From contig RPFO01000702.1 in NCBI GenBank assembly GCA_009746045.1, forward strand, positions 124,001 to 188,000: a stretch of DNA of 64,000 nt, in the 5' to 3' direction. The notes below the pieces were generated by a model. It was given only the letters and a program-made list of their open reading frames with translations, was not told where the DNA came from and ran no database searches. Shown here piece after piece: positions 167 through 19,536 of the stretch (the stretch's first letter is position 1; every line of letters starts with the position of its first letter). This DNA is from Mesostigma viride (taxonomy: Eukaryota > Streptophyta > Mesostigmatophyceae > Mesostigmatales > Mesostigmataceae). The translations under genes were made by a program, and so were the position numbers.

Positions 167-3100
167 TTAAAATAAAAGTTTTAACTTTAATGTACCCTGA
201 TGTCCAACGTATTTTTTCTTCAGATGGCAGTTATAGCTAGCATCTATTTCAGTATTATTACGTTTTACAAGTACACTACCGCCAATATTGTAACCTAATT
301 TCGGTAATTTACTGGTATTTGTATCATTTTCAAATTCCCTATCGGCCCACTGTAATTTAACTTTTCCTTGCTTTATCTTATCTTGCAATATCCTTTCCAT
401 GGAAAAGTTTAAGGAAGGTATAAAATGTATATTCCCAGCTACCACCTGAGGCATCGAGGCCTTAATTCCCGCTATACCGCTGAATATTTTTCTAGATTTA
501 CTTGTTACTGATAAATTGAACACATCATTACCAGTTTCATCGTATGCGCCATCAGCTATTTTACCGTATTTAAATCCTATACTAGGTGTTAATACAAATT
601 TATCGATGTTAAATTTATAACTTAATTGACTTCTAATGTTATAACCTTTGGTATTGAACTTACCGGTAGCCGTCTCATATATACCATCATCGATTAACTT
701 AACACTCTTATTAACCACTTTACCTTTTATAAAGGAAACTGCTCCTTGAAGTAATAATCTATTAACAACTTCACCCTGACCATAAATCGAAAACGTATCA
801 TGATTAACATTAAACTTATCGCCTCTAGTTTGAGACATTTTAAATTTAGAGCGAGCCTTACCATAAGCTATTCCAATCAGATTAGCTTCATTTTCCCCTA
901 AATTGATATCAGCACCAATAGTAATTCCCCCTATATTAGTTCGGTAAGCATCAGCATTTGAGCTAGAACCTTGCTTGGCACCACCATAAAAGCCGCTAAT
1001 CCATACGCTTTTGTTTAGTTTCTTAACTTCTTCACCAGCAGCAACTCCCACCATTAACATTCTATTTTCAATTTGTGTAAACACACTGCTAAATAGGATA
1101 TTACTTATTTCTGGAGTTATTAAATTAGCCCGTTGTTTAAAATGGCTTATTCCTTGCTCAATTTCCTCACTTTCTAAATTTTGCATCGCAGATAAATATC
1201 TTGCAGCTTTATTCATAGAAGAAGTTGAAGATGATTCGTTAGTATTATTTGGATCTTGCAAGCTTTCATTGAAGTCAAAATCAACTTCCGAAAGCAGCTC
1301 AGCCGTTTTTTCTGGATTTTGTTTAGCAGCTAAAATTACCTCTTGTGCTTTTGCCTTTTTTAACTTGATTTTTTCATGATGAGCAATCAGTTCTTTAATT
1401 AAATCTTTCTTGATTTCATTACTGCCTTCAGAATTTAAAATATCATTTATTAATAATTCAGTTTCTTTAATTAAATCTTTCTTGATTTCATTACTGCCTT
1501 CAGAATTTAAAATATCATTTATTAATAATTCAGTTTCTTTAGTTAAAGGCTCTGATATTTCAGCTACAACATCTGGTACAGAACTATCTAAAGGTTTCCC
1601 AGCTAGTAGAATTGAGCCAACAGCATAATCAACACCAACATCCTTTCTTACCGTCTCTACTCCCTCTACAGCTGGCAATTCAGAACCAATGCCTATAACC
1701 TTAGATGTTATTAAAGGATTTTGAACAGCTAATTGAGGTAAAGTTTCTATATCACTTGATAAACCTAAATTTTTACCACCGCTTACAGAACGCACTACTA
1801 TAGCATTATTAAACTTAGGACTTGCTTCAATACTAACTATATCCGATACTGAATCTGTTAAAACCCTTCCATTTCCTAATACTCTTAAAGCTTCATTATC
1901 GTTAACAACTAAAGGCTCTGATATTTCAGCTACAACATCTGGTACAGAACTATCTAAAGGTTTCCCAGCTAGTAGAATTGAGCCAACGGCATAATCAACA
2001 CCAACATCCTTTCTTACCGTCTCTACTCCCTCTACAGCTGGCAATTCAGAACCAATGCCTATAACCTTAGATGTTATTAAAGGATTTTGAACAGCTAATT
2101 GAGGTAAAGTTTCTATATCACTTGATAAACCTAAATTTTTACCACCGCTTACAGAACGCACTACTACAGCATTATTAAACTTAGGACTTGCTTCAATACT
2201 AACTATATCCGATACTGAATCTGTTAAAACCCTTCCATTTCCTAATACTCTTAAAGCTTCATTATCGTTAACAACTAAAGGCTCTGATATTTCAGCTACA
2301 ACATCTGGTACAGAACTATCTAAAGGTTTCCCAGCTAGTAGAATTGAGCCAACGGCATAATCAACACCAACATCCTTTCTTACCGTCTCTACTCCCTCTA
2401 CAGCTGGCAATTCAGAACCAATGCCTATAACCTTAGATGTTATTAAAGGATTTTGAACAGCTAATTGAGGTAAAGTTTCTATATCACTTGATAAACCTAA
2501 ATTTTTACCACCGCTTACAGAACGCACTACTACAGCATTATTAAACTTAGGACTTGCTTCAATACTAACTATATCCGATACTGAATCTGTTAAAACCCTT
2601 CCATTTCCTAATACTCTTAAAGCTTCATTATCGTTAACAACTAAAGGCTCTGATATTTCAGCTACAACATCTGGTACAGAACTATCTAAAGGTTTCCCAG
2701 CTAGTAGAATTGAGCCAACAGCATAATCAACACCAACATCCTTTCTTACCGTCTCTACTCCCTCTACAGCTGGCAATTCAGAACCAATGCCTATAACCTT
2801 AGATGTTATTAAAGGATTTTGAACAGCTAATTGAGGTAAAGTTTCTATATCACTTGATAAACCTAAATTTTTACCACCGCTTACAGAACGCACTACTATA
2901 GCATTATTAAACTTAGGACTTGCTTCAATACTAACTATATCCGATACTGAATCTGTTAAAACCCTTCCATTTCCTAATACTCTTAAAGCTTCATTATCGT
3001 TAACAACTAAAGGCTCTGATATTTCAGCTACAACATCTGGTACAGAACTATCTAAAGGTTTCCCAGCTAGTAGAATTGAGCCAACAGCATAATCAACACC

Positions 3101-5866
3101 AACATCCTTTCTTACCGTCTCTACTCCCTCTACAGCTGGCAATTCAGAACCAATGCCTATAACCTTAGATGTTATTAAAGGATTTTGAACAGCTAATTGA
3201 GGTAAAGTTTCTATATCACTTGATAAACCTAAATTTTTACCACCGCTTACAGAACGCACTACTACAGCATTATTAAACTTAGGACTTGCTTCAATACTAA
3301 CTATATCCGATACTGAATCTGTTAAAACCCTTCCATTTCCTAATACTCTTAAAGCTTCATTATCGTTAACAACTAAAGGCTCTGATATTTCAGCTACAAC
3401 ATCTGGTACAGAACTATCTAAAGGTTTCCCAGCTAGTAGAATTGAGCCAACAGCATAATCAACACCAACATCCTTTCTTACCGTCTCTACTCCCTCTACA
3501 GCTGGCAATTCAGAACCAATGCCTATAACCTTAGATGTTATTAAAGGATTTTGAACAGCTAATTGAGGTAAAGTTTCTATATCACTTGATAAACCTAAAT
3601 TTTTACCACCGCTTACAGAACGCACTACTATAGCATTATTAAACTTAGGACTTGCTTCAATACTAACTATATCCGATACTGAATCTGTTAAAACCCTTCC
3701 ATTTCCTAATACTCTTAAAGCTTCATTATCGTTAACAACTAAAGGCTCTGATATTTCAGCTACAACATCTGGTACAGAACTATCTAAAGGTTTCCCAGCT
3801 AGTAGAATTGAGCCAACGGCATAATCAACACCAACATCCTTTCTTACCGTCTCTACTCCCTCTACAGCTGGCAATTCAGAACCAATGCCTATAACCTTAG
3901 ATGTTATTAAAGGATTTTGAACAGCTAATTGAGGTAAAGTTTCTATATCACTTGATAAACCTAAATTTTTACCACCGCTTACAGAACGCACTACTATAGC
4001 ATTATTAAACTTAGGACTTGCTTCAATACTAACTATATCCGATACTGAATCTGTTAAAACCCTTCCATTTCCTAATACTCTTAAAGCTTCATTATCGTTA
4101 ACAACTAAAGGCTCTGATATTTCAGCTACAACATCTGGTACAGAACTATCTAAAGGTTTCCCAGCTAGTAGAATTGAGCCAACAGCATAATCAACACCAA
4201 CATCCTTTCTTACCGTCTCTACTCCCTCTACAGCTGGCAATTCAGAACCAATGCCTATAACCTTAGATGTTATTAAAGGATTTTGAACAGCTAATTGAGG
4301 TAAAGTTTCTATATCACTTGATAAACCTAAATTTTTACCACCGCTTACAGGGTTTAGTGATAAAGCAATATTAGAGACTGGTTCTTTGTTGATACTTTCT
4401 GCTTCTGTAACTGCTCCTATTAAATCTTGTCCCATAAGTTCATCAATATTTGATGTATCTGGGGTAGGCTGCAATAAGTTCAAGAAATCTACATTTTTTA
4501 TATGTGCTAATAAAATAGCCGCATCTCTTTTATTTTTTGAGGTATAATTATCTTCTTTTTCTTCTAAAAAATCAAAAAAAACTTGATCTAAAGCATTTAA
4601 TATTACCATCCTACTATTACTCAATTTTCCATTGGTATCTATAAGTGGTAGTGATACACCATCAAAACTATCAAAACCTTTATCCCTTGCAAGAGTTGTA
4701 AGCTTGGTTTTAAGCCTTCTCTCTAACTCTAAATCTTTTACATGAAGACGCTCTATAAAGCTTTCTTTTATATTTCTTAATATAGAATCAGCGCTTTGTT
4801 TTATTTGACGAGAACTAGATTGTATAGTAAGGAAATCAGAATGTATTTTATCTAATCTCTGTAATATTTGTTGCCTTTCTTCAACAGATAATTGTGCTTT
4901 TTCAAATGGTTTAGATTCTTTATCGTAGATCCCTTTTTCCATAGCAAATTTTATAAGCCCATCCTGTAGTCTGCGCTGTAAAATAAGTATAGGTTTATCA
5001 TTACGTAAAACCATTTGATCACTGTTATATGATGAAATACTAGTTTTAGATTGGCTAATTTTACTTGTTAGACTAGCATAATCATTATAACTGGGAACTT
5101 CTTTAGCCCCATTATTTGGAAATTCTGCATCTAGATCTACAGCAGAATGAGTACTACTCTTGGATTTAACTGAACGGCTCGGACTTAAATGATCACTCTG
5201 AATCTCTCTTAACACTCCACCTGGAAATTCTGCTTCTAGATCTATAGCCGAACGAGTACTACTCTTAGATTTGACTGAGCGGCTCGGACTTAAATGATCA
5301 CTCTGAATCTCTCTTAACACTCCACCTGGAAATTCTGCTTCTAGATCTATAGCCGAACGAGTACTACTCTTAGATTTGACTGAGCGGCTCGGACTTAAAT
5401 GATCACTCTGAATCTCTCTTAACACTCCACCTGGAAATTCTGCATCTAGATCTACAGCAGAATGAGTACTACTCTTGGATTTAACTGAACGGCTCGGACT
5501 TAAATGATCACTCTGAATCTCTCTTAACACTCCACCTGGAAATTCTGCATCTAGATCTACAGCAGAATGAGTACTACTCTTGGATTTAACTGAACGGCTC
5601 GGACTTAAACTAGATAATCTTCTGAAATGTTGTTTTTGAGGAGAATTAATTACTGCTGAAGTAATATCTACAAGTGCATCTGAAACTATCAAAGGAATAT
5701 GGCTGATTTTAACACTTTGCCTAGGAGGTGTAACCAAAACTGAAGCATTTAGTTTACCTTTAGATGAAGTAATTGCAAGGCCATTAGTTTTAGATGAAGC
5801 AATTGCAAAGCCATTAGTTGCAAATATGAGTAAAAAACTAGTTAAACCTATTATCAACCATTTCAT
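167..5866 (-). CDS. Sca-like autotransporter adhesin with long tandem repeats
   Basis: This 1,899-aa protein is predicted to be a surface autotransporter (type Va). It starts with a hydrophobic signal peptide (MKWLIIGLTSFLLIF...). A block of 35-aa repeats follows (about residues 86-250), then a helical charged region, then about 7.7 copies of a 122-aa repeat (roughly residues 505-1440) and a duplicated 24-aa segment. The last ~280 residues form an autotransporter beta-barrel: GFYGG motif, alternating hydrophobic strands, C-terminal phenylalanine (LKLLF). This layout matches rickettsial Sca (surface cell antigen) proteins, which act in adhesion or motility. Which Sca member it is cannot be told from the sequence. 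The repeats are almost identical at DNA level, so copy number may vary between strains or be collapsed in assemblies. No clear Shine-Dalgarno lies before the ATG. It is the last gene of a minus-strand run, and a 13-bp hairpin sits just upstream. Confidence 0.88.
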   Translation of the reverse strand: MKWLIIGLTSFLLIFATNGFAIASSKTNGLAITSSKGKLNASVLVTPPRQSVKISHIPLIVSDALVDITSAVINSPQKQHFRRLSSLSPSRSVKSKSSTHSAVDLDAEFPGGVLREIQSDHLSPSRSVKSKSSTHSAVDLDAEFPGGVLREIQSDHLSPSRSVKSKSSTRSAIDLEAEFPGGVLREIQSDHLSPSRSVKSKSSTRSAIDLEAEFPGGVLREIQSDHLSPSRSVKSKSSTHSAVDLDAEFPNNGAKEVPSYNDYASLTSKISQSKTSISSYNSDQMVLRNDKPILILQRRLQDGLIKFAMEKGIYDKESKPFEKAQLSVEERQQILQRLDKIHSDFLTIQSSSRQIKQSADSILRNIKESFIERLHVKDLELERRLKTKLTTLARDKGFDSFDGVSLPLIDTNGKLSNSRMVILNALDQVFFDFLEEKEDNYTSKNKRDAAILLAHIKNVDFLNLLQPTPDTSNIDELMGQDLIGAVTEAESINKEPVSNIALSLNPVSGGKNLGLSSDIETLPQLAVQNPLITSKVIGIGSELPAVEGVETVRKDVGVDYAVGSILLAGKPLDSSVPDVVAEISEPLVVNDNEALRVLGNGRVLTDSVSDIVSIEASPKFNNAIVVRSVSGGKNLGLSSDIETLPQLAVQNPLITSKVIGIGSELPAVEGVETVRKDVGVDYAVGSILLAGKPLDSSVPDVVAEISEPLVVNDNEALRVLGNGRVLTDSVSDIVSIEASPKFNNAIVVRSVSGGKNLGLSSDIETLPQLAVQNPLITSKVIGIGSELPAVEGVETVRKDVGVDYAVGSILLAGKPLDSSVPDVVAEISEPLVVNDNEALRVLGNGRVLTDSVSDIVSIEASPKFNNAVVVRSVSGGKNLGLSSDIETLPQLAVQNPLITSKVIGIGSELPAVEGVETVRKDVGVDYAVGSILLAGKPLDSSVPDVVAEISEPLVVNDNEALRVLGNGRVLTDSVSDIVSIEASPKFNNAIVVRSVSGGKNLGLSSDIETLPQLAVQNPLITSKVIGIGSELPAVEGVETVRKDVGVDYAVGSILLAGKPLDSSVPDVVAEISEPLVVNDNEALRVLGNGRVLTDSVSDIVSIEASPKFNNAVVVRSVSGGKNLGLSSDIETLPQLAVQNPLITSKVIGIGSELPAVEGVETVRKDVGVDYAVGSILLAGKPLDSSVPDVVAEISEPLVVNDNEALRVLGNGRVLTDSVSDIVSIEASPKFNNAVVVRSVSGGKNLGLSSDIETLPQLAVQNPLITSKVIGIGSELPAVEGVETVRKDVGVDYAVGSILLAGKPLDSSVPDVVAEISEPLVVNDNEALRVLGNGRVLTDSVSDIVSIEASPKFNNAIVVRSVSGGKNLGLSSDIETLPQLAVQNPLITSKVIGIGSELPAVEGVETVRKDVGVDYAVGSILLAGKPLDSSVPDVVAEISEPLTKETELLINDILNSEGSNEIKKDLIKETELLINDILNSEGSNEIKKDLIKELIAHHEKIKLKKAKAQEVILAAKQNPEKTAELLSEVDFDFNESLQDPNNTNESSSTSSMNKAARYLSAMQNLESEEIEQGISHFKQRANLITPEISNILFSSVFTQIENRMLMVGVAAGEEVKKLNKSVWISGFYGGAKQGSSSNADAYRTNIGGITIGADINLGENEANLIGIAYGKARSKFKMSQTRGDKFNVNHDTFSIYGQGEVVNRLLLQGAVSFIKGKVVNKSVKLIDDGIYETATGKFNTKGYNIRSQLSYKFNIDKFVLTPSIGFKYGKIADGAYDETGNDVFNLSVTSKSRKIFSGIAGIKASMPQVVAGNIHFIPSLNFSMERILQDKIKQGKVKLQWADREFENDTNTSKLPKLGYNIGGSVLVKRNNTEIDASYNCHLKKKYVGHQGTLKLKLLF
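1392..1535. repeat. Two tandem 72-bp direct repeats in the autotransporter gene
   Basis: Units 1392-1463 and 1464-1535 appear identical and encode a duplicated 24-aa helical segment (ETELLINDILNSEG...) between the large repeat array and the beta-barrel domain. The 72-bp unit keeps the reading frame. Confidence 0.9.
1544..4350. repeat. 366-bp tandem repeat array, about 7.7 copies
   Basis: The same 366-bp (122-aa) unit recurs with landmarks at 1551, 1917, 2283, 2649, 3015, 3381, 3747 and 4113. By eye the copies differ at only two positions. One is a synonymous A/G in an alanine codon (for example aacagcat at ~1620 versus aacggcat at ~1986). The other is a T/C that swaps Ile and Val (ctatagc versus ctacagc). 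Such homogeneity means recent amplification or continuing gene conversion. The unit is an exact multiple of three, so copy-number changes leave the frame intact. Confidence 0.95.
5117..5609. repeat. 105-bp tandem repeat array, about 4.7 copies
   Basis: Landmarks at 5176, 5281, 5386, 5491 and 5596 are spaced by exactly 105 bp and encode a 35-aa unit beginning LSPSRSVKSKSS. Two variants alternate: HSAVDLDAEF and RSAIDLEAEF. In protein order they run H, H, R, R, H. The unit is Ser/Lys/Arg-rich and lies right behind the signal peptide. Confidence 0.93.
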
Positions 5867-9460: not shown

Positions 9461-9697
9461 AATAACTTTTAATTTGTTTTTTTATAAGTTTAAGCCCAAT
9501 TTATTTTGGATCTAATTACCCTCTAATTTAAGAGTGATAGTACAAAATACCATTAGGTTAGTCAAGATAAAAAGAAAGATATATTCTATATCATACTATT
9601 TTTACATTAGAAAGTTATAAACTTTTGGAACTATTAAAATAAAATGCGAGTTTCGTATTAATTACGAAATATACTACACTTATAATTGATTAAAAAA

Positions 9698-9877
9698 TAA
9701 AATTTTTAGATTTATCAAACGATATAGAAACTTCACCTCAATCAGCTGTTCAAAATCCTTTAATAACATCTAAGGTTATAGGAGGCTGTGGAGACAGCAA
9801 AAAAAGATGTTGGTGTTGATTATGCAATTAGATCAACTCTATTAACTCCAACTTTGGTTAAGAAAGTAGATGAATAG
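9698..9877 (+). pseudogene. Decayed copy of the autotransporter 122-aa repeat
   Basis: On the plus strand, translation gives LSNDIETSPQSAVQNPLI followed by TSKVIG, which matches the repeat unit of the autotransporter at 167-5866. An internal deletion of about 24 nt removes the IGIGSELPA stretch. The match then resumes in a shifted frame as AVETAKKDVGVDYAI and runs to a TAG at 9875-9877. There is no start codon and no beta-barrel. This is the remnant of a second, opposite-strand copy of the Sca gene or of its repeat. It explains part of the 460-bp gap between 9461 and 9921. Confidence 0.8.
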
Positions 9878-9881
9878 CTGA
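9843..9881 (+). repeat. 39-bp segment shared with 24174-24212 (inverted)
   Basis: The end of the autotransporter remnant (aactccaact...gaatagctga) recurs in reverse orientation at 24174-24212 with one mismatch. The two copies flank the accessory island on its left and right sides. Confidence 0.75.
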
Positions 9882-9888
9882 AGGACTA

Positions 9889-10598
9889 GGTATAGTTTAA
9901 TAGCAGCAAAAGCAATAAAAGCTAGGAAAGCGCTATCCAACTTATCAAAACGCATAGATAATCCGCTGTTTTCTTTAGCTTTGTAAAGAAGTTTTCAATC
10001 AACAATCTTAGCTTATACTTAGTTTTATCGTATAAAATAGCCTCCTTCCTATTTTTACGTCCCGGAATTACAGGAATATTATTATTAGACAGGAGATTTT
10101 GTCTGTGGTTATTACAATCATATTCTTTATCTTCTATAACGTAGCACCCGGATATGTATGCCGTTAGCGCACCTGCAATGCTAATATCATCGGTGTTACC
10201 GTCCATCAGGAAGCAGTCTATAATTTGAAGATTAGGCGTTATTGCCAAGTACAACTTTGTTGTCATGCCAGATACGCTCCTACCTTTTAACTACTGCCTT
10301 TTTTTAAGCCGCTGCCGTGACGGTGAAACTTAAAACTACTTGAGTCGTATAAAACTACATTCATTTTAAATTTCTTTTGTTGCTGAAGATCTAAATAGAT
10401 AATATGCCCATTGCCGAAGCATTTCGGTAAATCCTTCCATGGTATTCCAGTCCCTAATACATATAATATTGCACAAAATACCTCATAATAACTTATCTTC
10501 GGCAGCCTTCCTTTCCATATATAACTTTTTTCTATAGTCGGTTGAACTAAGCTGTCAAACAAATTCCGTTCTATTGGGTAGAGACTTTTATCCATCAC
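9889..10598 (-). pseudogene. Broken IS5-family transposase
   Basis: Two open pieces make up this element. Residues from 10598 to 10287 carry the N-terminal IS5/IS427-type domain (LYPIERNLFDSLVQP, GTGIPWKDLPKCFG). Then the middle of the family's usual sequence is missing and the text jumps to the KFKMNVVLYDSSSFKFHRHG segment. The second piece (10266-9922) carries the DDE core region (TTKLYLAITPN, IPVIPGRKNRKEAILYDKTKYK, ENFFTKLKK). Near 9965 another frameshift hides the expected C-terminus, which can be read in the next frame as MRFDKLDSAFLAFIAFAAIK. With at least two frame breaks and a deletion it cannot encode a working transposase. It marks the left edge of the accessory island, 153 bp upstream of the CDPS fusion gene. 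Confidence 0.85.
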
Positions 10599-10751
10599 TT
10601 ATCCTACTTTTTTATTGCAGTTTACTCTCGACTCCCTATTTGCAAACATTTGTTAACAGTACCAAAAGAATTATTCGTATATCTAAAAATTAGCTTGCAA
10701 TTCTGTCATATTTTAATAATTTAAAACTAATTCCTTTTTTACTTAAGATCT

Positions 10752-12581
10752 ATGAAAAATATGATTGATTACCAAATAATTGATGCTGTAGACGCTAGCA
10801 TATATTGGAAAGATTTATCTGGTAAATATATTGGCTGTAATAAGTACATGTCAAAAATGGCCGGAATGAGCCGTAATCAAATAATAGGAAACACAGACTA
10901 TTTACTTCCTTGGAAAAATCAAGCAAATAAGATTAGAGAAGTAGATTTGTGGGTTATAAATAACCTTAAAGAATATAAAATAGAGGAAACAGCAATAGTT
11001 TATGGAGGTATTAAGAAGATATTTTTAAGTTCAAAGAGTCCTCTACTTAATGAAAATGGTGATGTTATAGGCATTATAGGAGTATCAATTGATATTACAC
11101 ATTATAAGCGATTTGAAGAAGAATTTAAGCAAACTGAAATGTACTTAAATAAATACTCATCTATCAAAAATAGATTTCTTGATAAGTTTAGTCAGGAATC
11201 ACGAATCCCTTTGAGTAATATTTTATCATTATCCCAATTATCAAGAGATAAATGGGATCAATTGGATGATGTAGCGAAACGTCAAAATATGGAATTAATA
11301 TTCAATAAAACAAGTCAACTATCTCAATTTATTCTTAATGTCTTTGATGCATCTATTTTTTTTAAAGATAGGATACAACTTGAACTAACATTTGCTAACT
11401 TTTCTAATTTTGTAAAAGATACAGTCAAACAATATCAAGAAAACTATTGCGATGTAAAAGTAAATATAGAGATGAACCATTTTGACGATTACTGTTTTGC
11501 ATTTGATCAAAAATTAATTACCCGAGTGATTAATAACTTAATGATGAATGCTATTCAATATTCAAATAAAAACAAAGCAATAACGATTAGTTTGTACAAA
11601 ACATACTTAAAAGACACTGAAATACCGGCAGTACAATTTTGTATTCGAGATGAAGGAGTCGGAATTCCCGAAAACGAGTTAGGATCTATATTTGATCCAT
11701 TTGTTGAAAGTAGTATTACTAGTTCAAAAGATTGGGGTGTTGGATTGGGGCTTGCTATATGCAAAGAAATTATTGAGGCACATTTAGGAAATATTTGGGT
11801 TGAAAATAATATATTAAGATCAGGTACCACTTTTAATTTTACTCTTCCGGTAAGTTTGTCTTCTAATAATTTTAATAATATAGATAAGAACACTGAAGAT
11901 AAAGGTGAGTACAACAATATTATCAGAAAGAATTTAGAAGAATATACAAATCCTATCAAAAAAGAACCATTTGCTTTAATTGGTATTAGTCCATTCAATA
12001 GTTATTTCTCTACTGAGAAAATTCTAAAAATCTGTGAATGGATAAATAGCAGATATAATGATTTTGCTATATTTATTCCTGATGAAATTTCTAGATATAC
12101 TTTTGAAGCTTTGGGATATACAGAATCACGAATTGGAAGAAAAATAAAAAAGCAGGATAATTATACTCTCAATAAAACTTATACAGCGTTATCTTATTTT
12201 TATAATAATCATCCACAAAAAAAAGACCAAATTAGAGTACATACTATTTCTCAGTTAAAACACGAGAAATCTTTTCAAGACATATATCATATATATTCAC
12301 ACAAATTCATTTCTGATAAACAATTTAGACAAAATTGTTTAGAGGTTACTGAGTGGGTATTGTTGAATAATAACACTAAAGATCATAAAATAGAAGAATT
12401 TCATAAAAACATAGCTGCACAATACTTTTTAACAGAACTACCTATACTAACTAATGCAACAAATATTTTAAAAGTAGAGTCATGCGATTTTGTGTATCAT
12501 TCTATTCCAAAGTTTTTAAAGCAGCTTTATCTTAGTAAAGAAATAGTATCTTCTAAACAAAAATTCTTGATTCTTCAATAA
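10752..12581 (+). CDS. PAS / kinase-like ATPase fused to cyclodipeptide synthase
   Basis: A 609-aa protein with three parts. Residues ~6-115 are a PAS sensor domain (ASIYWKDLSGKYIGCNKYM ... GIIGVSIDIT). Residues ~140-375 resemble a histidine kinase, but the H-box reads FLDKFSQESRIPLS, so the phospho-accepting His is Gln148. The ATP-binding motifs remain: N-box NNLMMNAIQYS near 261-271, G1 box DEGVGIP at 300, G2 box GVGLGLAI near 330. Residues ~400-609 are a tRNA-dependent cyclodipeptide synthase: GISPFNSYF with catalytic Ser413 and Asn416, a Lys/Arg-rich tRNA-binding helix (RIGRKIKKQ), Y558-x3-E562-LP, and Tyr582-His583 exactly 20/21 residues after Glu562. These match AlbC S37, N40, Y178, E182, Y202, H203, hence the NYH subfamily. 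CDPSs join two amino acids from aminoacyl-tRNAs into a cyclic dipeptide. The products here cannot be predicted. The domain calls are from motifs; regulation of the synthase by the PAS/ATPase part is inferred. IS5 and IS6 debris on both sides suggest transfer. Confidence 0.85.
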   Translation: MKNMIDYQIIDAVDASIYWKDLSGKYIGCNKYMSKMAGMSRNQIIGNTDYLLPWKNQANKIREVDLWVINNLKEYKIEETAIVYGGIKKIFLSSKSPLLNENGDVIGIIGVSIDITHYKRFEEEFKQTEMYLNKYSSIKNRFLDKFSQESRIPLSNILSLSQLSRDKWDQLDDVAKRQNMELIFNKTSQLSQFILNVFDASIFFKDRIQLELTFANFSNFVKDTVKQYQENYCDVKVNIEMNHFDDYCFAFDQKLITRVINNLMMNAIQYSNKNKAITISLYKTYLKDTEIPAVQFCIRDEGVGIPENELGSIFDPFVESSITSSKDWGVGLGLAICKEIIEAHLGNIWVENNILRSGTTFNFTLPVSLSSNNFNNIDKNTEDKGEYNNIIRKNLEEYTNPIKKEPFALIGISPFNSYFSTEKILKICEWINSRYNDFAIFIPDEISRYTFEALGYTESRIGRKIKKQDNYTLNKTYTALSYFYNNHPQKKDQIRVHTISQLKHEKSFQDIYHIYSHKFISDKQFRQNCLEVTEWVLLNNNTKDHKIEEFHKNIAAQYFLTELPILTNATNILKVESCDFVYHSIPKFLKQLYLSKEIVSSKQKFLILQ

Positions 12582-12633
12582 TTCAAAAAGCAGTTCTTTA
12601 TATTTAAGAACCTTGGACTAAAAGACTGTAAGC

Positions 12634-12932
12634 AGCACTGTTGCAAATAATGAGGTAAGGGAGTACAATAAGTGTTCTTAATAAAAAAGAATACTAAATT
12701 TATGAATCTATTCAAGCATCACCATTTCAAGCATGACATAATAATCTGGATGATAAGATAGTACTGCAAGTACGGCATCAGTTATCGTGGTTTAAGGAAA
12801 TGCTTATAGAAAGAAGGGTAGAGGTAGATCACTCCACAATTTATTGCTGGGTTCAATACTATGCTCCTAAATTATTGGAGAAACTTAAATGGCATTGGAA
12901 ACCTAAGCTAGAGCTTAGTTGGAGAGTTGATT
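12634..12932 (+). pseudogene. IS6-family (IS26-like) transposase remnant with left end
   Basis: GCACTGTTGCAAAT at 12635-12648 is the terminal sequence typical of IS6/IS26 elements. About 55 bp further on, an ATG at 12702 opens a reading frame FKHHHFKHDIIIWMIR, then a stop where the family has Trp, then YCKYGISYRGL. After a frameshift it continues EMLIERRVEVDHSTIYCWVQ and YYAPKLLEKLKWHW, the IS6 N-terminal helix-turn-helix region. The catalytic part is missing and no right end was found. The remnant fills most of the 409-bp gap between the CDPS fusion gene and the MFS gene. Confidence 0.85.
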
Positions 12933-12990
12933 GTCATTGTTTAAATAACTGCTTTAATAGGAAAAGTTTATAAAATAATCATTAATTTAA

Positions 12991-14277
12991 ATGCAAGAAG
13001 CACAACAGAGAAGTCTTACCAAAGAACAAAAAGAAGCAGTAGGTATTTTATCAATAGGAACGTTTTTTGAGCAATTTGATATAATGCTTTATATTCATAT
13101 GGCTGTTTTATTAAATGAGCTATTCTTTCCTCAAACAGATCAAAACGTTGCTTCGTTACTTTCTGCTTTTACATTTTGCTCTACATTTATTTTCATACCA
13201 ATTGGAGCTCTTATATTTGGATGGGTAGGCGACAACATAGGTAGAAAGTCAACAGTAGTTTTAACAACCCTTCTAACAGCTTTATCGTGCCTTACTATTG
13301 CATTTCTACCTACTTATGCTGAAATAGGAATAAAAGCTTCCATTATAATGATTGGATGTAGAATACTCCAAAGTATGGCATCTATGGGAGAAGTTATAGG
13401 AGCTTTAGTATATATAACTGAATTTACAAAACCTCCTATAAGGTATTACGCTGTAGCACTTATACCTGTTCTAGGGTATAGTGGAGGTCTTGCTGCTTTG
13501 GGTGTTGCATCACTTATTGTGTATGCTGAAGTAAATTGGCGAGGTATTTTTGTCTTTGGAGCTTTAATAGCATTAGTTGGAATAGCGATAAGAACAAAAT
13601 TAAGCGAAACCAAAGATTTCGCTAACGCCTCAAAAAGACTACAAACCCAATATAATGTAAACCCTGACGAAGAGGATTTATTTTACGATGCGAGTTATAA
13701 AAAAACTTCATTTGCTATGTTTTGCACCCAATGTGCATGGCCTTTGTGTTTTTACTTTGTTTTTATTTATTGTAGTCAAATGCTAAAAAGTCAATTTGAG
13801 TATTCTGTATTAGATATAATAAAACATAATTTTGTTATTTCGATATTTCCCGTAGTATCCTGTTTTATTAGGGCTAAATTATCAAAGAGACTTCATCCTT
13901 TAATTTTATTCAAATATAGTTTAATTATTTCTTTTTTCTTCTTTATTATTATAGCTTTTTATTTAGATAGTAGCCCTAACCCTTTAGGGATAGGAATTTT
14001 TCAATCATTACTATTAATGTTTACTCCAAATGGATATTCGGAGTCATCTGTAATGTTTCCTCATTTTCCTGTGTTTAAAAGATTTCAATCTGCATGCTTG
14101 TCCTATGCTTTTTCTCGTGCGTTTATGTACATTGCTACTTCTTTTGGATTAATCCTTATAATAAAATTGATTGGAATATCATGGGGGTTAATATTCGCTA
14201 CATCTTGTGTTTCTGCTATAGGAGCATATGGGTGTTTTTATTTCTTACGGCTTGAACAAAAGAATATAATGATTTAA
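12991..14277 (+). CDS. MFS transporter, metabolite:H+ symporter type
   Basis: This is a 428-aa inner-membrane protein with about 12 hydrophobic segments. The MFS motif A loop reads GWVGDNIGRKS after the second helix. The N-terminus (GTFFEQFDIMLYIHMAVLLNE) resembles the MHS family (ProP/KgtP-like: FEWYDF-type first helix). Rickettsiae carry many ProP-like paralogues of unknown substrate. It lies on the same strand as the CDPS fusion, separated by an IS6 remnant. MFS exporters often accompany CDPS genes, so export of the cyclic dipeptide or a precursor is possible, but MHS members are mostly importers and there is no direct evidence. Its last 33 bp overlap the convergent SpoT-like gene. Confidence 0.8.
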   Translation: MQEAQQRSLTKEQKEAVGILSIGTFFEQFDIMLYIHMAVLLNELFFPQTDQNVASLLSAFTFCSTFIFIPIGALIFGWVGDNIGRKSTVVLTTLLTALSCLTIAFLPTYAEIGIKASIIMIGCRILQSMASMGEVIGALVYITEFTKPPIRYYAVALIPVLGYSGGLAALGVASLIVYAEVNWRGIFVFGALIALVGIAIRTKLSETKDFANASKRLQTQYNVNPDEEDLFYDASYKKTSFAMFCTQCAWPLCFYFVFIYCSQMLKSQFEYSVLDIIKHNFVISIFPVVSCFIRAKLSKRLHPLILFKYSLIISFFFFIIIAFYLDSSPNPLGIGIFQSLLLMFTPNGYSESSVMFPHFPVFKRFQSACLSYAFSRAFMYIATSFGLILIIKLIGISWGLIFATSCVSAIGAYGCFYFLRLEQKNIMI

Positions 14278-14922
14278 ATCATTATATTCAACTAACCTAT
14301 TATTTTGATTCTTTAATAAATCCCTTTTTGGATTGTAATCCAAAATTTTATTTACAATATTACCAATTATAAACTCTATATTAATATCTTCTAAATAAGT
14401 AGCAGCTAGCAATACAGTATTTAAAGTTTCTTTAGCTACTTTTATCTGTTTATCTGCTGTAAGGAAATGTATGTTTTGTAGATTGTGTAACCTATCAAAT
14501 ATTTTAATTAATAACACCTCTTTATCACCATTTTTATAAGCCATCCTAATGATTTCCTTTACACTTAACTTTGTTCCATCTGGTCTATCACGGGTAAGTC
14601 TATCAACCATCTCAGCTATTCTCCGTCCAAAAGTTTCAAGAATCATTTCTACAGTAACTTCGGTATCTTCAACGATATCGTGTAATATGCTAGCTGCTAT
14701 TACATCCGTTTTTAAATTGTAATCCGAGATTATATAAGCTACTTCTAATGGATGGCTATAAAATGGCTCGCCGCTTTTTCTCAGCTGCCCATCGTGATAT
14801 TTTTTAGCAAAATAAATAGCTTTATTAATTAACCCAAAGTCTAGTACCCCGTTAGTATCTAGCAACTTTAGTTTTTCTATTAATCTTACTGAATATTTGC
14901 AGGATATTGAATAATCCATCAT
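14245..14922 (-). CDS. spoT: Short SpoT-like (p)ppGpp hydrolase (HD domain only)
   Basis: This 225-aa protein contains only the HD hydrolase domain of the RelA/SpoT family. The signatures are YHDGQLRKSGEPFYSHPLEVA, the HD pair in SILHDIVEDTEV, and KIFDRLHNLQNIHFL, with metal-binding His and Asp residues present. The synthetase, TGS and ACT domains are absent. Such stand-alone hydrolases are common in rickettsial genomes, where they occur as multiple spoT paralogues and probably degrade the alarmone in the cytosol. It overlaps the 3' end of the convergent MFS gene by 33 bp. A full-length RSH gene begins at 62953 in the same window. The symbol follows rickettsial usage; substrate has not been tested. 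Confidence 0.82.
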   Translation of the reverse strand: MMDYSISCKYSVRLIEKLKLLDTNGVLDFGLINKAIYFAKKYHDGQLRKSGEPFYSHPLEVAYIISDYNLKTDVIAASILHDIVEDTEVTVEMILETFGRRIAEMVDRLTRDRPDGTKLSVKEIIRMAYKNGDKEVLLIKIFDRLHNLQNIHFLTADKQIKVAKETLNTVLLAATYLEDINIEFIIGNIVNKILDYNPKRDLLKNQNNRLVEYNDLNHYILLFKP

Positions 14923-15097
14923 TTAAGGATTAATTAATAATATAATTATATAATAGCTGATTATGAATTAAATTATAAGTAAATTATGAATAACTTATTA
15001 AATTATTTTCTCTAATATTATAATTACGTATTAAAAAAATAAAACAATAGAAAAACATTTAATTAGAACAATACTTATGGTTATGACCTCCATAGGT

Positions 15098-16582: not shown

Positions 16583-18007
16583 ATGAAAAAATTGATTTGC
16601 TGGTTTCGCTGTGATTTAAGGACTCATGATAACCCTGCTTTATACAATGCCGCCAAGGAAGGTTTAGTTCTACCAATATATATTTTGAATGGTGATAGCC
16701 TAAGTGAACGGCCAATAGGATGCGCTAGTAAAGTATGGCTACATCATTCTCTTGTAGATTTGAATAAAAAACTTGCAAATAATTTAATTGTTAGAAAAGG
16801 CAATCCTATTGATATTTTAGCGGAATTAGTGAATTTTCATAAAATAGATAATATCTACTGGAATAGATGTTATGAACCATGGCAAGTAGATCGTGATAAA
16901 AAAATCAAAAAGATTTTTGAAGATAAGAACATAAAAGTTAAAAGCTATAATGCATCACTGCTATGGGAACCATGGAATATTCTAAAGAATGACGGAACAC
17001 CTTATAAAGTATTTACACCTTTCTATAGAAAGGGTTGTCTAGGTAATGATGAACCGAGAATTCCTTTACCCAAACCAGAAGGAATATCTTATGTTAAAAA
17101 TAATAATTCTACTAATATTAGAGATCTTAAGCTATTACCTGAAATTCAGTGGAATAAGAAATTTGACAAATACTGGAATATTGGCGAGGATGCGGCATGT
17201 AAAAGATTGGATGATTTTTTAGAATCTGGTCTAAAAGGTTATAAAGAAGGTAGAAATTTTCCGTATAAGGACAATACATCTTGTCTATCACCTTACTTAC
17301 ACTTTGGTGAAATTTCTCCAAATTATATTTGGCATAAAGTTATATCTCAAGAAAATAAAGGATATATACAAGATATAGATCATTTTTGCAGTGAGTTAGG
17401 GTGGAGAGAATTCTCCTATTACTTATTATATCATTTTCCATATTTGCCGAAACAGAATTTAAACAGGAACTTTGATATTTTCCCCTGGCGTGAAGATAAA
17501 ATAATATTAAAACTATGGCAGAAAGGAGAAACCGGTGTACCAATTGTTGACGCCGGTATGAGGCAGTTGTGGGAAATGGGGTATATGCATAATCGCATGC
17601 GAATGATCGTTGGATCTTTCTTAGTCAAAAACTTACTGTTGCACTGGAAATACGGAGAAAAATGGTTTTGGGATTGCTTAGTTGACGCTGATCTTGCGAA
17701 TAACTCTGCAAGCTGGCAATGGATTGCTGGTTGCGGAGCAGATGCAGCGCCGTATTTTCGCATTTTTAATCCAGTTACTCAAGGTCAAAAATTTGATCCA
17801 GAAGGCAGCTATACTAGAAAATTTGTTCCTGAACTCAAAAATCTTCCAAATGAATATTTATTCAACCCATGGGAAGCGCCAGAACATATACTTAGCAAGG
17901 CTGGAATAAATCTAGGAATAGATTATCCAAAGCCTATAGTCAACTTAAAAGAATCACGTGATCGTGCTTTAATATCCTTTGCATCATTAAAAAACAAGAC
18001 CCCATGA
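16583..18007 (+). CDS. phrB: Deoxyribodipyrimidine photolyase, class I CPD type
   Basis: This 474-aa cytosolic flavoprotein is predicted to split UV-induced cyclobutane pyrimidine dimers with blue light. The N-terminal antenna domain starts LICWFRCDLRTHDNPALY. The C-terminal FAD domain contains SCLSPYLHFGEISP, ELGWREFSYYLLYHFP, VDAGMRQLWEMGYMHNRMRM, KNLLLHWKYGEKWFWD and DADLANNSASWQWIAG. These are the class I signatures, including flavin-binding and electron-transfer tryptophan positions, and the length is normal. It overlaps the next gene by 4 bp (ATGA), so translation is likely coupled. A photolyase is unexpected in a strictly intracellular lineage and suggests a light-exposed host or a transmission stage in the environment. 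Confidence 0.95.
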   Translation: MKKLICWFRCDLRTHDNPALYNAAKEGLVLPIYILNGDSLSERPIGCASKVWLHHSLVDLNKKLANNLIVRKGNPIDILAELVNFHKIDNIYWNRCYEPWQVDRDKKIKKIFEDKNIKVKSYNASLLWEPWNILKNDGTPYKVFTPFYRKGCLGNDEPRIPLPKPEGISYVKNNNSTNIRDLKLLPEIQWNKKFDKYWNIGEDAACKRLDDFLESGLKGYKEGRNFPYKDNTSCLSPYLHFGEISPNYIWHKVISQENKGYIQDIDHFCSELGWREFSYYLLYHFPYLPKQNLNRNFDIFPWREDKIILKLWQKGETGVPIVDAGMRQLWEMGYMHNRMRMIVGSFLVKNLLLHWKYGEKWFWDCLVDADLANNSASWQWIAGCGADAAPYFRIFNPVTQGQKFDPEGSYTRKFVPELKNLPNEYLFNPWEAPEHILSKAGINLGIDYPKPIVNLKESRDRALISFASLKNKTP

Positions 18008-19536
18008 AAAATTTAAGAATTATATTGTATGATCAATTAAGCCATGAAATATCATCTTTATCAGATATTGATAAAGATGAAGATATAGTCCTTATGGTTG
18101 AGCTCCATTCGGAATTTACTCATGTAAAACATCATAAAAAGAAGATAGCATTTCTTTTATCTGCGATGCGGCATTTTGCCAAAGAGCTTAAGGATTCAGG
18201 TGTCAATCTTCGCTATGTAAAAATAGATGATCAAAATAATAAAAATTCTTTAAAGGATCAAATAAAAGAAGTTATAGAAAAATATTCAGTAAAAAAGGTA
18301 ATAGTAACATTCCCTTCAGAATATAGAATTTTGCAAGAGATAAAAAGCTGGAAAAATATAATCAATATTCCGATTGAAATACGAGAAGATAATCGTTTTT
18401 TATGTACACCAAACGAATTCAGTAAATGGGCAGGTGAAAAAAAACAACTGAGGATGGAATTTTTTTATCGTGAAATGCGAAAAAAGCATAATATTTTGAT
18501 GAATGGTGATGAACCAGAAGGAGGAAAGTGGAATTATGATAATGAAAATCGTAAATTACCACCTAAGGATCTCAATATCCCAGCAAATTATAAGATAAAG
18601 CAAGATCAAATAACAATGGAAGTTATTAAATTAGTAAATGAACACTTCTTTGACCATTTTGGTGATCTAGAACCATTCTTTTTTGCAGTTACACGAGATG
18701 ACGCAAGATTAGTACTAATCGATTTTATTGAAAAGAGACTCAAAAAATTTGGTGATTATCAAGACGCTATGATAGAAAATGAACCTTGGATGTTTCATTC
18801 ACATTTAAGCTTTTATCTGAATTGTGGCCTCCTTACCCCGATAGAATGTGTAAAGGCAGCAGAGTATGCATATCATAGAAAAAGTCTCCCTATAAACTCT
18901 GTTGAAGGCTTTATCAGGCAAATTATAGGATGGCGTGAGTATATAAGAGGAATCTACTGGCATAGGATGCCTAGCTATAAAAACGAGAATTTTTTTGGGG
19001 CTAATCGTAAGTTACCAAGTTTTTTTTGGGAAGCGGATTCAAAGATGAACTGTGTTGATCAATGCGTTAAAGAAACAAAAAAACATGCATACGCACATCA
19101 TATTCAAAGATTAATGGTGCTAGGTAATTTTGCACTTCTAGCCGGAATTCATCCAAACGAAGTCAATGAATGGTATCTGATTGTATACGCCGATGCATAC
19201 GAGTGGGTAGAACTACCGAACGTAACGGGCATGATATTATTTGCAGACGGAGGGTATCTTGCAAGTAAACCCTACGCAGCAGGTGGCTCTTATATTAAAA
19301 AAATGTCTAATTATTGTACAAATTGTTCTTTCAAAATAAATATTAAAAATGGTAGCGAAGCCTGTCCGTTTAATTATTTATACTGGAATTTTCTGGTGTG
19401 CAACCGAAGCAAGTTAGAAAGAAATCATAGGATATCTATGATGTATAAAACATATGATAAAATGAGTAGCTCACAAAAAGAGGCAATAGCGTCTGATTCT
19501 AGAAAGTTTTTAAACAACATAAAATATGACTATTAA
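18004..19536 (+). CDS. FeS bacterial cryptochrome/photolyase (PhrB/CryB type)
   Basis: This is a 510-aa member of the FeS-BCP clade, whose studied members repair (6-4) photoproducts and carry FAD, a lumazine antenna and a [4Fe-4S] cluster. The N-terminus has the clade pattern (LYDQLSHEISSL, MVELHSEFTHVKHHKKKI, SAMRHFAKEL). Four cysteines stand at residues 350, 438, 441 and 454 (MNCVDQCVKE; YCTNCSFKI; EACPFNYLYW), the positions used as cluster ligands in the Agrobacterium protein. FAD-site motifs include FIRQIIGWREYIRGIYW and HHIQRLMVLGNFALLAGI. The start overlaps phrB by 4 bp. The gene's last bases overlap the ATG of a truncated FAD oxidoreductase, so the operon originally continued. Full length and intact by eye. 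Confidence 0.92.
   Translation: MKNLRIILYDQLSHEISSLSDIDKDEDIVLMVELHSEFTHVKHHKKKIAFLLSAMRHFAKELKDSGVNLRYVKIDDQNNKNSLKDQIKEVIEKYSVKKVIVTFPSEYRILQEIKSWKNIINIPIEIREDNRFLCTPNEFSKWAGEKKQLRMEFFYREMRKKHNILMNGDEPEGGKWNYDNENRKLPPKDLNIPANYKIKQDQITMEVIKLVNEHFFDHFGDLEPFFFAVTRDDARLVLIDFIEKRLKKFGDYQDAMIENEPWMFHSHLSFYLNCGLLTPIECVKAAEYAYHRKSLPINSVEGFIRQIIGWREYIRGIYWHRMPSYKNENFFGANRKLPSFFWEADSKMNCVDQCVKETKKHAYAHHIQRLMVLGNFALLAGIHPNEVNEWYLIVYADAYEWVELPNVTGMILFADGGYLASKPYAAGGSYIKKMSNYCTNCSFKINIKNGSEACPFNYLYWNFLVCNRSKLERNHRISMMYKTYDKMSSSQKEAIASDSRKFLNNIKYDY

What the first reader, a model, noticed from the sequence alone, without database searches (positions are those of the whole stretch)
10752..12581. PAS and kinase-like ATPase fused to a cyclodipeptide synthase
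Seen: an H-box with Gln at the phospho-His position (Q148), intact N/G1/G2 ATP boxes, then a CDPS with S413, N416, Y558, E562, Y582, H583 at AlbC-like spacing (E562 to Y582 is exactly 20 residues, as in AlbC E182 to Y202). Known: CDPSs (AlbC family, NYH subfamily) are normally stand-alone ~230-aa enzymes that use charged tRNAs. Inferred: the sensor/ATPase half gates peptide synthesis directly, with no response regulator, so an intracellular bacterium could turn a signal into a small diffusible cyclic dipeptide. I do not know of a described signalling system with this layout.
Basis: partly seen in the sequence, partly recalled or inferred. Interest (0 to 1): 0.93.

Follow-up and report, generated by a model that had tools for sequence, protein, structure and literature searches.

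The report
Sensor kinase fused to cyclodipeptide synthase
A bacterium that lives inside algae carries one protein joining a signal-sensing, kinase-like half to an enzyme that should make tiny ring-shaped peptides; related bacteria also keep these two parts together, which hints at an unstudied chemical signalling system.

Summary
ORF 10752-12581 (609 aa, intact) is PAS + degenerate HisKA + HATPase_c + a complete NYH-type cyclodipeptide synthase (CDPS); all but HisKA pass a Pfam cut-off. It is not an artefact: the same fusion forms 19 distinct groups at 90% identity (31 database rows), with the CDPS catalytic residues unchanged in all 31. The Gln at the phospho-His site is a derived loss in the window's lineage: 16 of the 18 groups with that column keep His. 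Elsewhere CDPSs and PAS-kinases are joined differently: CDPS-PAS-kinase fusions, adjacent CDPS and PAS-kinase genes (also in two Legionellales), and XYP-type CDPS-PAS-kinase fusions with a small PQ-loop ORF upstream. In 343 genomes of the window's order, all 7 with a convincing CDPS are kinase-linked (one decayed); one stand-alone-length Rickettsiaceae database CDPS has unread context, and three CDPSs in the wider class show no kinase nearby. Most likely this is a synthase-plus-sensor signalling module; PAS may sense the cyclodipeptide. In the window copy the phospho-acceptor is lost while PAS, ATPase and CDPS stay constrained, so cis control is plausible. Product and direction of coupling are unknown. 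A CDPS/PAS neighbourhood link and quorum-sensing guess were published in 2018; I found no paper on the fusion.

The parts
10752..12581 (+). PAS-HisKA(degenerate)-HATPase-CDPS fusion gene, 609 aa
10782..11102 (+). PAS domain (residues 11-117)
   Evidence: Pfam PAS_4 36.6 bits, PAS_9 30.2 bits; highest mean pairwise identity of the domains, 67.5% in 18 representatives
11166..11348 (+). Degenerate HisKA/DHp domain (residues 139-199)
   Evidence: 14.7 bits, below cut-off 26.9; lineage-specific acceleration 17:1 with outgroup P0004
11193..11195 (+). Codon of Gln148 at the phospho-His position
   Evidence: 26 His, 2 Gln, 1 Tyr, 2 gaps in 31 rows
11505..11852 (+). HATPase_c domain (residues 252-367) with N, G1 and G2 boxes intact
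   Evidence: 82.5 bits; N262, N266, D300, G302, G331, G333 invariant in A1
11859..11951 (+). Variable linker (residues 370-400) between ATPase and CDPS
   Evidence: 28% mean pairwise identity
11952..12575 (+). NYH-type cyclodipeptide synthase domain (residues 401-608); S413, N416, Y558, E562, Y582, H583
   Evidence: PF16715 139.7 bits, TIGR04539 151.1 bits, PDB hits, AlbC fold match
9922..10598 (-). IS5-type transposase remnants in two ORFs, just upstream of the fusion gene
   Evidence: DDE_Tnp_1_3 and DUF4096 over Pfam cut-offs; NF033580 below its cut-off
12590..12985 (.). Stretch between the fusion gene and the MFS gene with partial copies elsewhere in the genome; probably a mobile-element remnant
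   Evidence: 83-84% matches at C1:808698 and C1:1214829, shorter ones at three more places; stops in all six frames

Best explanation
The gene encodes a single-chain cyclodipeptide synthase plus PAS sensor. SHOWN BY SEQUENCE: a complete NYH CDPS is covalently joined to a PAS-GHKL sensor; the fusion is a conserved family; the same two modules recur joined in other orders and as neighbouring genes, with two CDPS subfamilies. INFERRED: the CDPS uses two aminoacyl-tRNAs to make a small cyclodipeptide (its P1 pocket is lined by Leu/Gly/Ile/Phe, so hydrophobic residues are likely); the cytosolic PAS binds that product or a closely tied metabolite; in most relatives this sets His phosphorylation and a phosphorelay, i.e. 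a built-in signal synthase and receptor, in the manner of autoinducer-synthase/sensor-kinase pairs. In the window copy the phospho-His and the constraint on the DHp domain are gone while PAS, ATPase and CDPS remain constrained, so this copy probably no longer phosphorylates a partner; PAS and the ATP-bound domain are then expected to act on the attached CDPS, the output being the cyclodipeptide itself. Rough odds: CDPS catalytically active 0.85; PAS ligand is the CDPS product 0.37; cis control of the CDPS in this copy 0.4.
For: Domain and active-site evidence. Fusion family: 31 of the 32 hits carry both HATPase_c and CDPS (the length rule kept stand-alone CDPSs out). Recurrent linkage: adjacent genes in G362, G751, G752 (two loci) and G789 (HATPase_c for G362 and G789); G397 and P0033 CDPS-PAS-kinase fusions (receiver-like tails by eye); Legionella lytica plasmid CDPS overlapping a PAS-HisKA-HATPase-REC-Hpt gene; XYP CDPS fused to PAS-kinase in G155, G226, G111, G107, each with an 87-105-aa PQ-loop/SemiSWEET-like ORF just upstream (profile hits in the two tested; the other two by eye); XYP CDPS next to PAS-PAS-kinase on an Endohaliclona plasmid. 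PAS more conserved than the kinase core in two of three linked triples: 67-72% vs 42-49% and 52-71% vs 31-43%. Window lineage against sister P0003, outgroup P0004: DHp changes 17:1 (p 1.5e-4), PAS 10:8, ATPase 15:15, CDPS 15:11; 8 control pairs with intact His, 4 domains each: none of 32 tests under p 0.05. Precedents: synthase and sensor genes usually adjacent (PMC3376566, passages); VqmA PAS binds the autoinducer DPO (PMC8284805, passages).
Against: The PAS type is not exclusive to CDPS loci: kinases of G146, G147, G184 with no CDPS in the 3.3-8.0 kb read score 86-91 bits against the fusion PAS profile, within the range of CDPS-linked ones outside A1 (62-114), and linked PASs are not one clade (4 label changes). 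The PAS excess is missing in the third linked triple (69-78 vs 61-82), and one of two unlinked triples has a small excess (34-43 vs 27-36; the other 32-37 vs 35-68). CDPSs without a kinase nearby exist: G374, G477, G460; 23 of the 27 hits are CDPS-only and 214-265 aa long, context unread, among them P0040, named a Rickettsiaceae protein. The only same-type locus read besides the window has no MFS or PQ-loop gene by eye. The model's pTM is 0.43, so it says nothing about contact between halves. The DHp skew is weaker with outgroup P0009 (14:4, p 0.03), was one of 18 tests, and with outgroup P0005 the CDPS also leans to the window branch (18:8, p 0.08). No product, ligand or activity is known.
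Confidence: 0.4

Rival explanations
1. Sensor-gated synthase: PAS senses an outside or metabolic cue unrelated to the product, and the kinase half opens or closes the CDPS in cis; no product sensing.
For: In the window copy and in P0032 the phospho-His is gone (Q, Y) but the CDPS residues are intact; in the window lineage the ATPase keeps the same rate as its His-bearing sister (15:15, 16:15, 14:16 with three outgroups). PAS folds sense many cues.
Against: Domain order differs among relatives (kinase before or after CDPS, or separate genes), which argues against one allosteric geometry; 26 of 29 fusion rows with that column and all 13 CDPS-linked kinases read outside A1 keep the His (G397 by eye), and some have REC/Hpt, so phospho-output matters there. 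In P0032 the ATPase also drifts with one of three outgroups (24:6, p 0.0014).
Confidence: 0.27
2. Tethered but uncoupled: the fusion only ensures co-expression; the kinase half of the window copy is decaying and the CDPS works alone, making a secondary metabolite for host interaction or defence.
For: Phospho-His lost and DHp relaxed; linker poorly conserved (28%); stand-alone-length relatives nest among the fusions in the CDPS tree (P0035-P0037), though they may be fragments; G119 keeps only pieces. Defensive symbiosis is the published guess for 'Ca. Megaira' CDPSs (PMC10132079, passages).
Against: PAS and ATPase show no relaxation in the window lineage: 0 of 37 and 1 of 24 near-invariant columns changed (HisKA 0 of 7, CDPS 1 of 61). 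The 18 other groups keep the fusion, but the search admitted long proteins only, so that is partly by construction.
Confidence: 0.21
3. Pathway-specific regulation: the PAS-kinase is an ordinary local regulator of a natural-product gene, without binding the product; such kinases may sit beside various biosynthetic genes.
For: A related PAS-kinase without CDPS lies next to a type I polyketide synthase gene on a Legionella adelaidensis plasmid; PAS types are shared by linked and unlinked kinases.
Against: Does not explain repeated covalent fusion, nor PAS being more conserved than the kinase in two of three linked triples.
Confidence: 0.11
4. Artefact: two genes joined by a sequencing or assembly error.
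For: None for this gene; one chimeric-looking database protein exists (P0010, a CDPS piece matching the window 100% joined to DnaE-like sequence).
Against: 18 further groups at 90% identity, down to 48% identity to the window, have the same order of domains.
Confidence: 0.01

Closest known systems
AlbC-type cyclodipeptide synthases, NYH subfamily (PF16715, TIGR04539; AlbC 3oqv, 6ez3, 6ztu, 3oqh)
   Same: Profile, fold and catalytic residues.
   Different: Those PDB chains are separate enzymes of 232-289 aa; here the CDPS is the C-terminal third of a sensor protein. P1 motif LGIIIILF (AlbC positions from PMC5816076; mapped by hand) is not among the motifs in the part of Table 2 that I saw, so no product is predicted.
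[quoted passage not shown]
   Same: CDPS within a larger chain; the CDPS part of CDPS 71 was active on its own.
   Different: Partners there are tailoring or transport domains on the C-terminal side of the CDPS; here a sensor kinase half on its N-terminal side.
CDPS gene neighbourhoods with PAS domains (PMC5767969, section 9 read whole; other passages)
   Same: PAS domains reported among the commonest non-biosynthetic domains near CDPSs; quorum sensing suggested; MFS the commonest efflux domain.
   Different: Its one mention of fusion concerns methyltransferases; 'kinase' and 'Rickettsi' do not occur in the main text.
'Ca. Megaira' antiSMASH CDPS calls (PMC10132079, passages)
   Same: Same organism group; the window genome's sizes equal those printed for strain MegNIES296 (PMC9098888, passages). 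The window gene may well be among the CDPSs discussed.
   Different: The main text has no 'histidine kinase'; defensive symbiosis was proposed. Its supplements were not read.
Autoinducer synthase/sensor kinase pairs CqsA/CqsS, LqsA/LqsS (PMC3376566, passages)
   Same: Small-molecule synthase genetically linked to a sensor kinase.
   Different: Different chemistry, membrane sensors, separate genes; sensing is untested here.
DPO-VqmA (PMC8284805, passages)
   Same: Cytosolic PAS domain as receptor for a small autoinducer.
   Different: VqmA is a transcription factor, not a kinase; fusion to a synthase is not described in what I saw.

Membership tests
Cyclodipeptide synthase (PF16715 / TIGR04539) | Profile match above curated cut-off | tested here: met
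   139.7 bits (cut-off 27) and 151.1 bits (cut-off 45)
Cyclodipeptide synthase (PF16715 / TIGR04539) | Catalytic Ser, Tyr, Glu, Tyr at AlbC positions | tested here: met
   S413, Y558, E562, Y582 in 31 of 31 rows; aligned to AlbC
Cyclodipeptide synthase (PF16715 / TIGR04539) | NYH signature | tested here: met
   N416 31/31, Y582 31/31, H583 30/31
Cyclodipeptide synthase (PF16715 / TIGR04539) | AlbC-like fold | tested here: met
   Foldseek to 3oqv TMt 0.81, rmsd 3.1
Cyclodipeptide synthase (PF16715 / TIGR04539) | Makes cyclodipeptides from aminoacyl-tRNAs | not testable with these tools
   needs enzyme assay
Histidine kinase | HATPase_c domain with ATP boxes | tested here: met
   82.5 bits; N/G1/G2 residues invariant in A1
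Histidine kinase | HisKA domain with phospho-acceptor His | tested here: not met
   Window: Q148, and 14.7 bits against cut-off 26.9. The His is present in 26 of 29 rows with that column
Autoinducer synthase/receptor pair | Synthase and sensor genetically linked | tested here: met
   fused here and in relatives; adjacent genes elsewhere
Autoinducer synthase/receptor pair | Sensor domain conserved with the synthase beyond the kinase core | tested here: inconclusive
   clear PAS excess in 2 of 3 linked triples, small in 1 of 2 unlinked triples and absent in the other; PAS type not CDPS-exclusive
Autoinducer synthase/receptor pair | Product binds and controls the sensor; product leaves the cell | not testable with these tools
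   needs ligand-binding and LC-MS work

The most novel reading that the evidence does not exclude
A previously unrecognised class of cyclodipeptide signalling in host-associated bacteria, in which an aminoacyl-tRNA-dependent signal synthase and its PAS receptor kinase are often one polypeptide. It was assembled more than once from NYH and XYP synthases, is served by a PQ-loop transporter in the XYP branch, and in the algal symbiont of this window has become a pseudokinase whose sensor/ATPase acts directly on the attached synthase.
Probability: 0.35. Interest if true: 0.9.

Novelty: new variant of a known kind. Interest (0 to 1): 0.72.

Why it matters
CDPSs are mostly discussed as makers of secondary metabolites. 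A repeatedly built physical link to PAS sensor kinases in bacteria that live with algae, amoebae, sponges and other hosts would make cyclodipeptides a signalling currency there, tie signalling to aminoacyl-tRNA supply, and give a one-gene test object for the 2018 suggestion that cyclodipeptides encoded near PAS domains are quorum signals. It also offers natural pairs (His-bearing and His-lost) for asking which half controls which.

Tried and rejected
Sequencing error or chimera: rejected. Operon with the MFS gene 12991-14277: not supported; a 409-bp gap with a repeated stretch lies between, the MFS near G397 is only 24% identical over the matched part, and the same-type fusion locus L009 has no MFS gene among its 22 listed ORFs (by eye). 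A PAS type found only with CDPS: rejected. Viral copies: no pattern match in viral contigs. Anti-phage defence: no PADLOC family on P0001 or P0033; one match on P0061 in its kinase region. RNA element near the gene: none at gathering score in 9500-15000. Promoter/terminator scan near chance (27 vs 23.3; 3 vs 1.8). Empty site in sister genome G165: flanks 98-99% identical, but its contigs end within about 140 bp of both breakpoints, so gain or loss is not shown. Product prediction from pocket residues: no match seen, so none claimed. Protein search with the XYP domain of G155 returned only itself (P0061) at E<=0.001. Stand-alone-length relatives: context cannot be fetched, so whether a kinase gene lies next to them is unknown. 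Of the plasmid CDPS hits I looked at the neighbours of 1 of 23 records and 1 of 4.
Full report
1. What is there. The window holds one intact 609-aa ORF at 10752-12581 (+). Pfam finds PAS_4 (11-117), HATPase_c (252-367) and CDPS PF16715 (401-608, 139.7 bits against a cut-off of 27); HisKA is sub-threshold (14.7 against 26.9). NCBIfam TIGR04539 scores 151.1 (cut-off 45). The CDPS half matches seven distinct PDB sequences at E<=0.01; six are CDPSs by name and the seventh, yvmC, is one by recall. An AlphaFold2 model from 31 sequences (mean pLDDT 77, pTM 0.43) matches AlbC 3oqv with target TM 0.81. The low pTM means the arrangement of the halves is not predicted.

2. It is a family. A search with residues 385-609 gave 32 proteins; by the tool's length rule only proteins of about 335-1066 aa could appear, so stand-alone CDPSs could not. 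31 of 32 carry both HATPase_c and CDPS; one, P0010, is a CDPS piece matching the window 100% joined to DnaE-like sequence and looks like a chimera. Thirty of them plus the window form alignment A1 (48-99% identity to the window; P0010 and P0033 left out; P0016 and P0018 lack the N-terminal part). P0002 (99%) stands for the window's own cluster, and 12 rows are near-copies of each other (96.7-100%); at 90% identity there are 19 groups, the window's included. S413, N416, G411, Y558, E562 and Y582 are invariant in 31 of 31, H583 in 30 of 31. The phospho-His column reads 26 H, 2 Q (window and P0002), 1 Y (P0032), 2 gaps; by groups 16 H, 1 Q, 1 Y, 1 gap. So the Gln is a local loss.

3. The loss has a footprint. 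Against sister P0003, changes on the window branch versus the sister branch with outgroups P0004, P0009 and P0005 are: HisKA 17:1, 14:4, 14:1 (p 1.5e-4, 0.03, 0.001); PAS 10:8, 8:8, 6:9; ATPase 15:15, 16:15, 14:16; CDPS 15:11, 18:11, 18:8 (lowest p 0.08) (six segments by three outgroups, uncorrected). Eight control pairs with intact His show no domain under p 0.05 (32 tests). The second His loss, P0032, shows a weaker HisKA skew (13:5, 14:4, 14:6) and, with one outgroup of three, ATPase drift (24:6). In the window lineage, then, the phosphotransfer domain is the one clearly relaxed; the ATPase still seems to have a job.

4. The two modules are joined again and again. (a) PAS-kinase-CDPS: the family above, also G168 (its contig has the length of JAHDGL010000003.1, which holds P0008). 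(b) CDPS-PAS-kinase: P0033 and G397 (receiver-like tails by eye, Pfam gives no Response_reg there). (c) CDPS gene followed closely by a PAS-kinase gene: G362 (16-bp gap), G751, two loci in G752 (one CDPS in two broken frames), and G789, whose kinase has a sub-threshold Response_reg match. (d) Legionella lytica plasmid: CDPS overlapping by 14 bp a PAS-HisKA-HATPase-REC-Hpt gene. (e) G119: kinase C-terminal piece followed by CDPS pieces in broken frames. (f) XYP-type CDPS: G155 is PAS-CDPS-PAS-kinase-REC, G107 CDPS-PAS-PAS-kinase, G111 CDPS-PAS-kinase, G226 (two copies, kinase cut by contig ends) CDPS-PAS-kinase; each has an 87-105-aa PQ-loop/SemiSWEET-like ORF just upstream, from a 17-bp overlap to a 31-bp gap (PQ-loop profiles for G155 and G226). 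These CDPSs score below the curated cut-offs with TIGR04539 (E about 1e-7 to 1e-8). A profile of these four and the Endohaliclona CDPS hits PDB CDPS 5ocd with E 2.6e-73; of its 19 hits at E<=1, 17 are CDPSs by name, one is uncharacterised and one a methyltransferase. hhalign to NYH CDPSs gives 96.4% probability. G111 has Phe at the AlbC Y178 place. (g) XYP CDPS followed by PAS-PAS-kinase on a Candidatus Endohaliclona renieramycinifaciens plasmid (TIGR04539 22.4 bits, below cut-off); the CDPS occurs in four plasmid records.

5. How often, and what does not fit. The window's order: TIGR04539 over 343 genomes gave 7 genomes at E<=0.01; one (G127) is a glutathione-transferase-like ORF by eye; the other six, plus G226 which that search missed and which came in through its PAS-kinase, make 7, all kinase-linked, one decayed. 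The search is not exhaustive, as G226 shows. Order of G362: 3 of 42 genomes with CDPS, 4 loci, all linked; order of G397: 2 of 49, both linked. Class sample: 9 of 385 at E<=1e-3, 6 over cut-off; 3 of these 6 are linked and 3 (G374, G477, G460) show no PAS or kinase in the 4-9 kb read; the 3 sub-threshold ones show none either, in 1.8-9 kb. Phylum sample: 1 of 398, the window's own. So linkage is the rule in the branches near the window, not for CDPSs at large. A CDPS search at usual CDPS length found 27 proteins: 2 carry HATPase_c, 2 are short pieces, and 23 are CDPS-only at 214-265 aa. Their neighbours could not be read. Three of them (P0035-P0037) nest among the fusions in the CDPS tree, and P0040 is named a Rickettsiaceae protein, so a kinase-free CDPS in that family is possible.

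6. Trees. In 41 PAS domains (29 linked, 12 unlinked) the linked label needs 4 changes (shuffled mean 10.6, 0 of 500 as low): clustered, but not one clade. In the CDPS tree the Legionella CDPS falls with a group that includes two named Streptomyces proteins, away from the other kinase-linked ones (86/81, midpoint root), while its PAS falls with the Rickettsiaceae fusions (87/82): the pairing seems to have been made more than once, with modest support.

7. Direction of coupling. Among the fusions the PAS has the highest mean pairwise identity (67.5%; CDPS 65.0, ATPase 58.7, HisKA 55.9). In triples chosen by me the PAS exceeds the kinase core in two of three linked groups (67-72 vs 42-49; 52-71 vs 31-43) and not in the third (69-78 vs 61-82); of two unlinked groups one has a small excess (34-43 vs 27-36) and one none (32-37 vs 35-68). 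I read this as a constant ligand, the obvious constant being the CDPS product; the sample is small. Variable domain order and REC/Hpt partners also point to a sensing output. Against this, the window copy has lost the phospho-acceptor and keeps its ATPase, which favours cis control there. I therefore give synthase-plus-sensor as the frame, with cis action in this copy, at 0.40.

8. Surroundings. IS5-type remnants (9922-10598) lie upstream and a repeated stretch (12590-12985) downstream; the MFS gene beyond is absent from the one other same-type locus read. Same-species G163 and same-genus G164 (77% complete) and G165 lack a CDPS hit; G165 has both flanks but contig ends near the breakpoints. 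This fits a mobile cargo gene but does not show it.

9. Prior knowledge. Seen: PMC5767969 section 9 whole and passages; passages of PMC5816076, PMC2922099, PMC10132079, PMC11828895, PMC9098888, PMC13220807, PMC3376566, PMC8284805. PMC2922099 (2010) found its CDPSs stand-alone with no fusions, noted CDPSs in intracellular bacteria, and lists 'Hiskin+rec' among figure abbreviations, so a nearby kinase may have been drawn there. Ten paper searches listed no paper whose title or shown start of abstract describes a CDPS-kinase fusion; the library holds open-licence papers only, and supplements were not read. Novelty is therefore a new variant: the association was hinted at; the fusion family, the His loss and the XYP/PQ-loop branch were not found described.

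Noticed in passing
L041:96-3656, L051:1-1576, L052:1-1531, L057:1164-3484, L058:396-2742: XYP-type CDPS-PAS-kinase fusions in four other genera of the window's order, each with a tiny PQ-loop/SemiSWEET-like ORF just upstream; the G155 protein (P0061) has no CDPS domain among its precomputed Pfam domains.
   Followed up: partly
L073:2455-5104: XYP-type CDPS gene (annotated hypothetical) followed by a PAS-PAS-kinase gene on the plasmid of the sponge symbiont Ca. Endohaliclona renieramycinifaciens.
   Followed up: partly
L014:5243-6300: G119 carries decayed pieces of a kinase-CDPS gene: ATPase C-terminus, then CDPS in broken frames.
   Followed up: partly
P0010: Database protein joining a CDPS piece matching the window 100% to DnaE-like sequence; looks like an assembly chimera.
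   Followed up: no
window 167-5866 (-) and about 9710-9890: Large autotransporter-like ORF with many near-identical long repeats; a short degraded copy of the same repeat seems to lie just upstream of the IS5 remnants (by eye).
   Followed up: no
G000 chromosome and plasmid: 16 further matches to the window protein, 25-38% identical, nearly all in the kinase part; eight in ~930-970-aa frames, two broken by stops: amplified kinase genes in an endosymbiont.
   Followed up: no
window 14245-14922 (-): Stand-alone 225-aa HD_4 protein resembling only the hydrolase part of SpoT/RelA.
   Followed up: no
window 16583-18007 and 18004-19536 (+): Two adjacent ORFs that look like photolyase and a photolyase-related protein (by eye), in an algal endosymbiont.
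   Followed up: no
L072:1-5581: A related PAS-kinase without CDPS sits directly after a type I polyketide synthase gene on a Legionella adelaidensis plasmid: this kinase type may accompany natural-product genes more widely.
   Followed up: no
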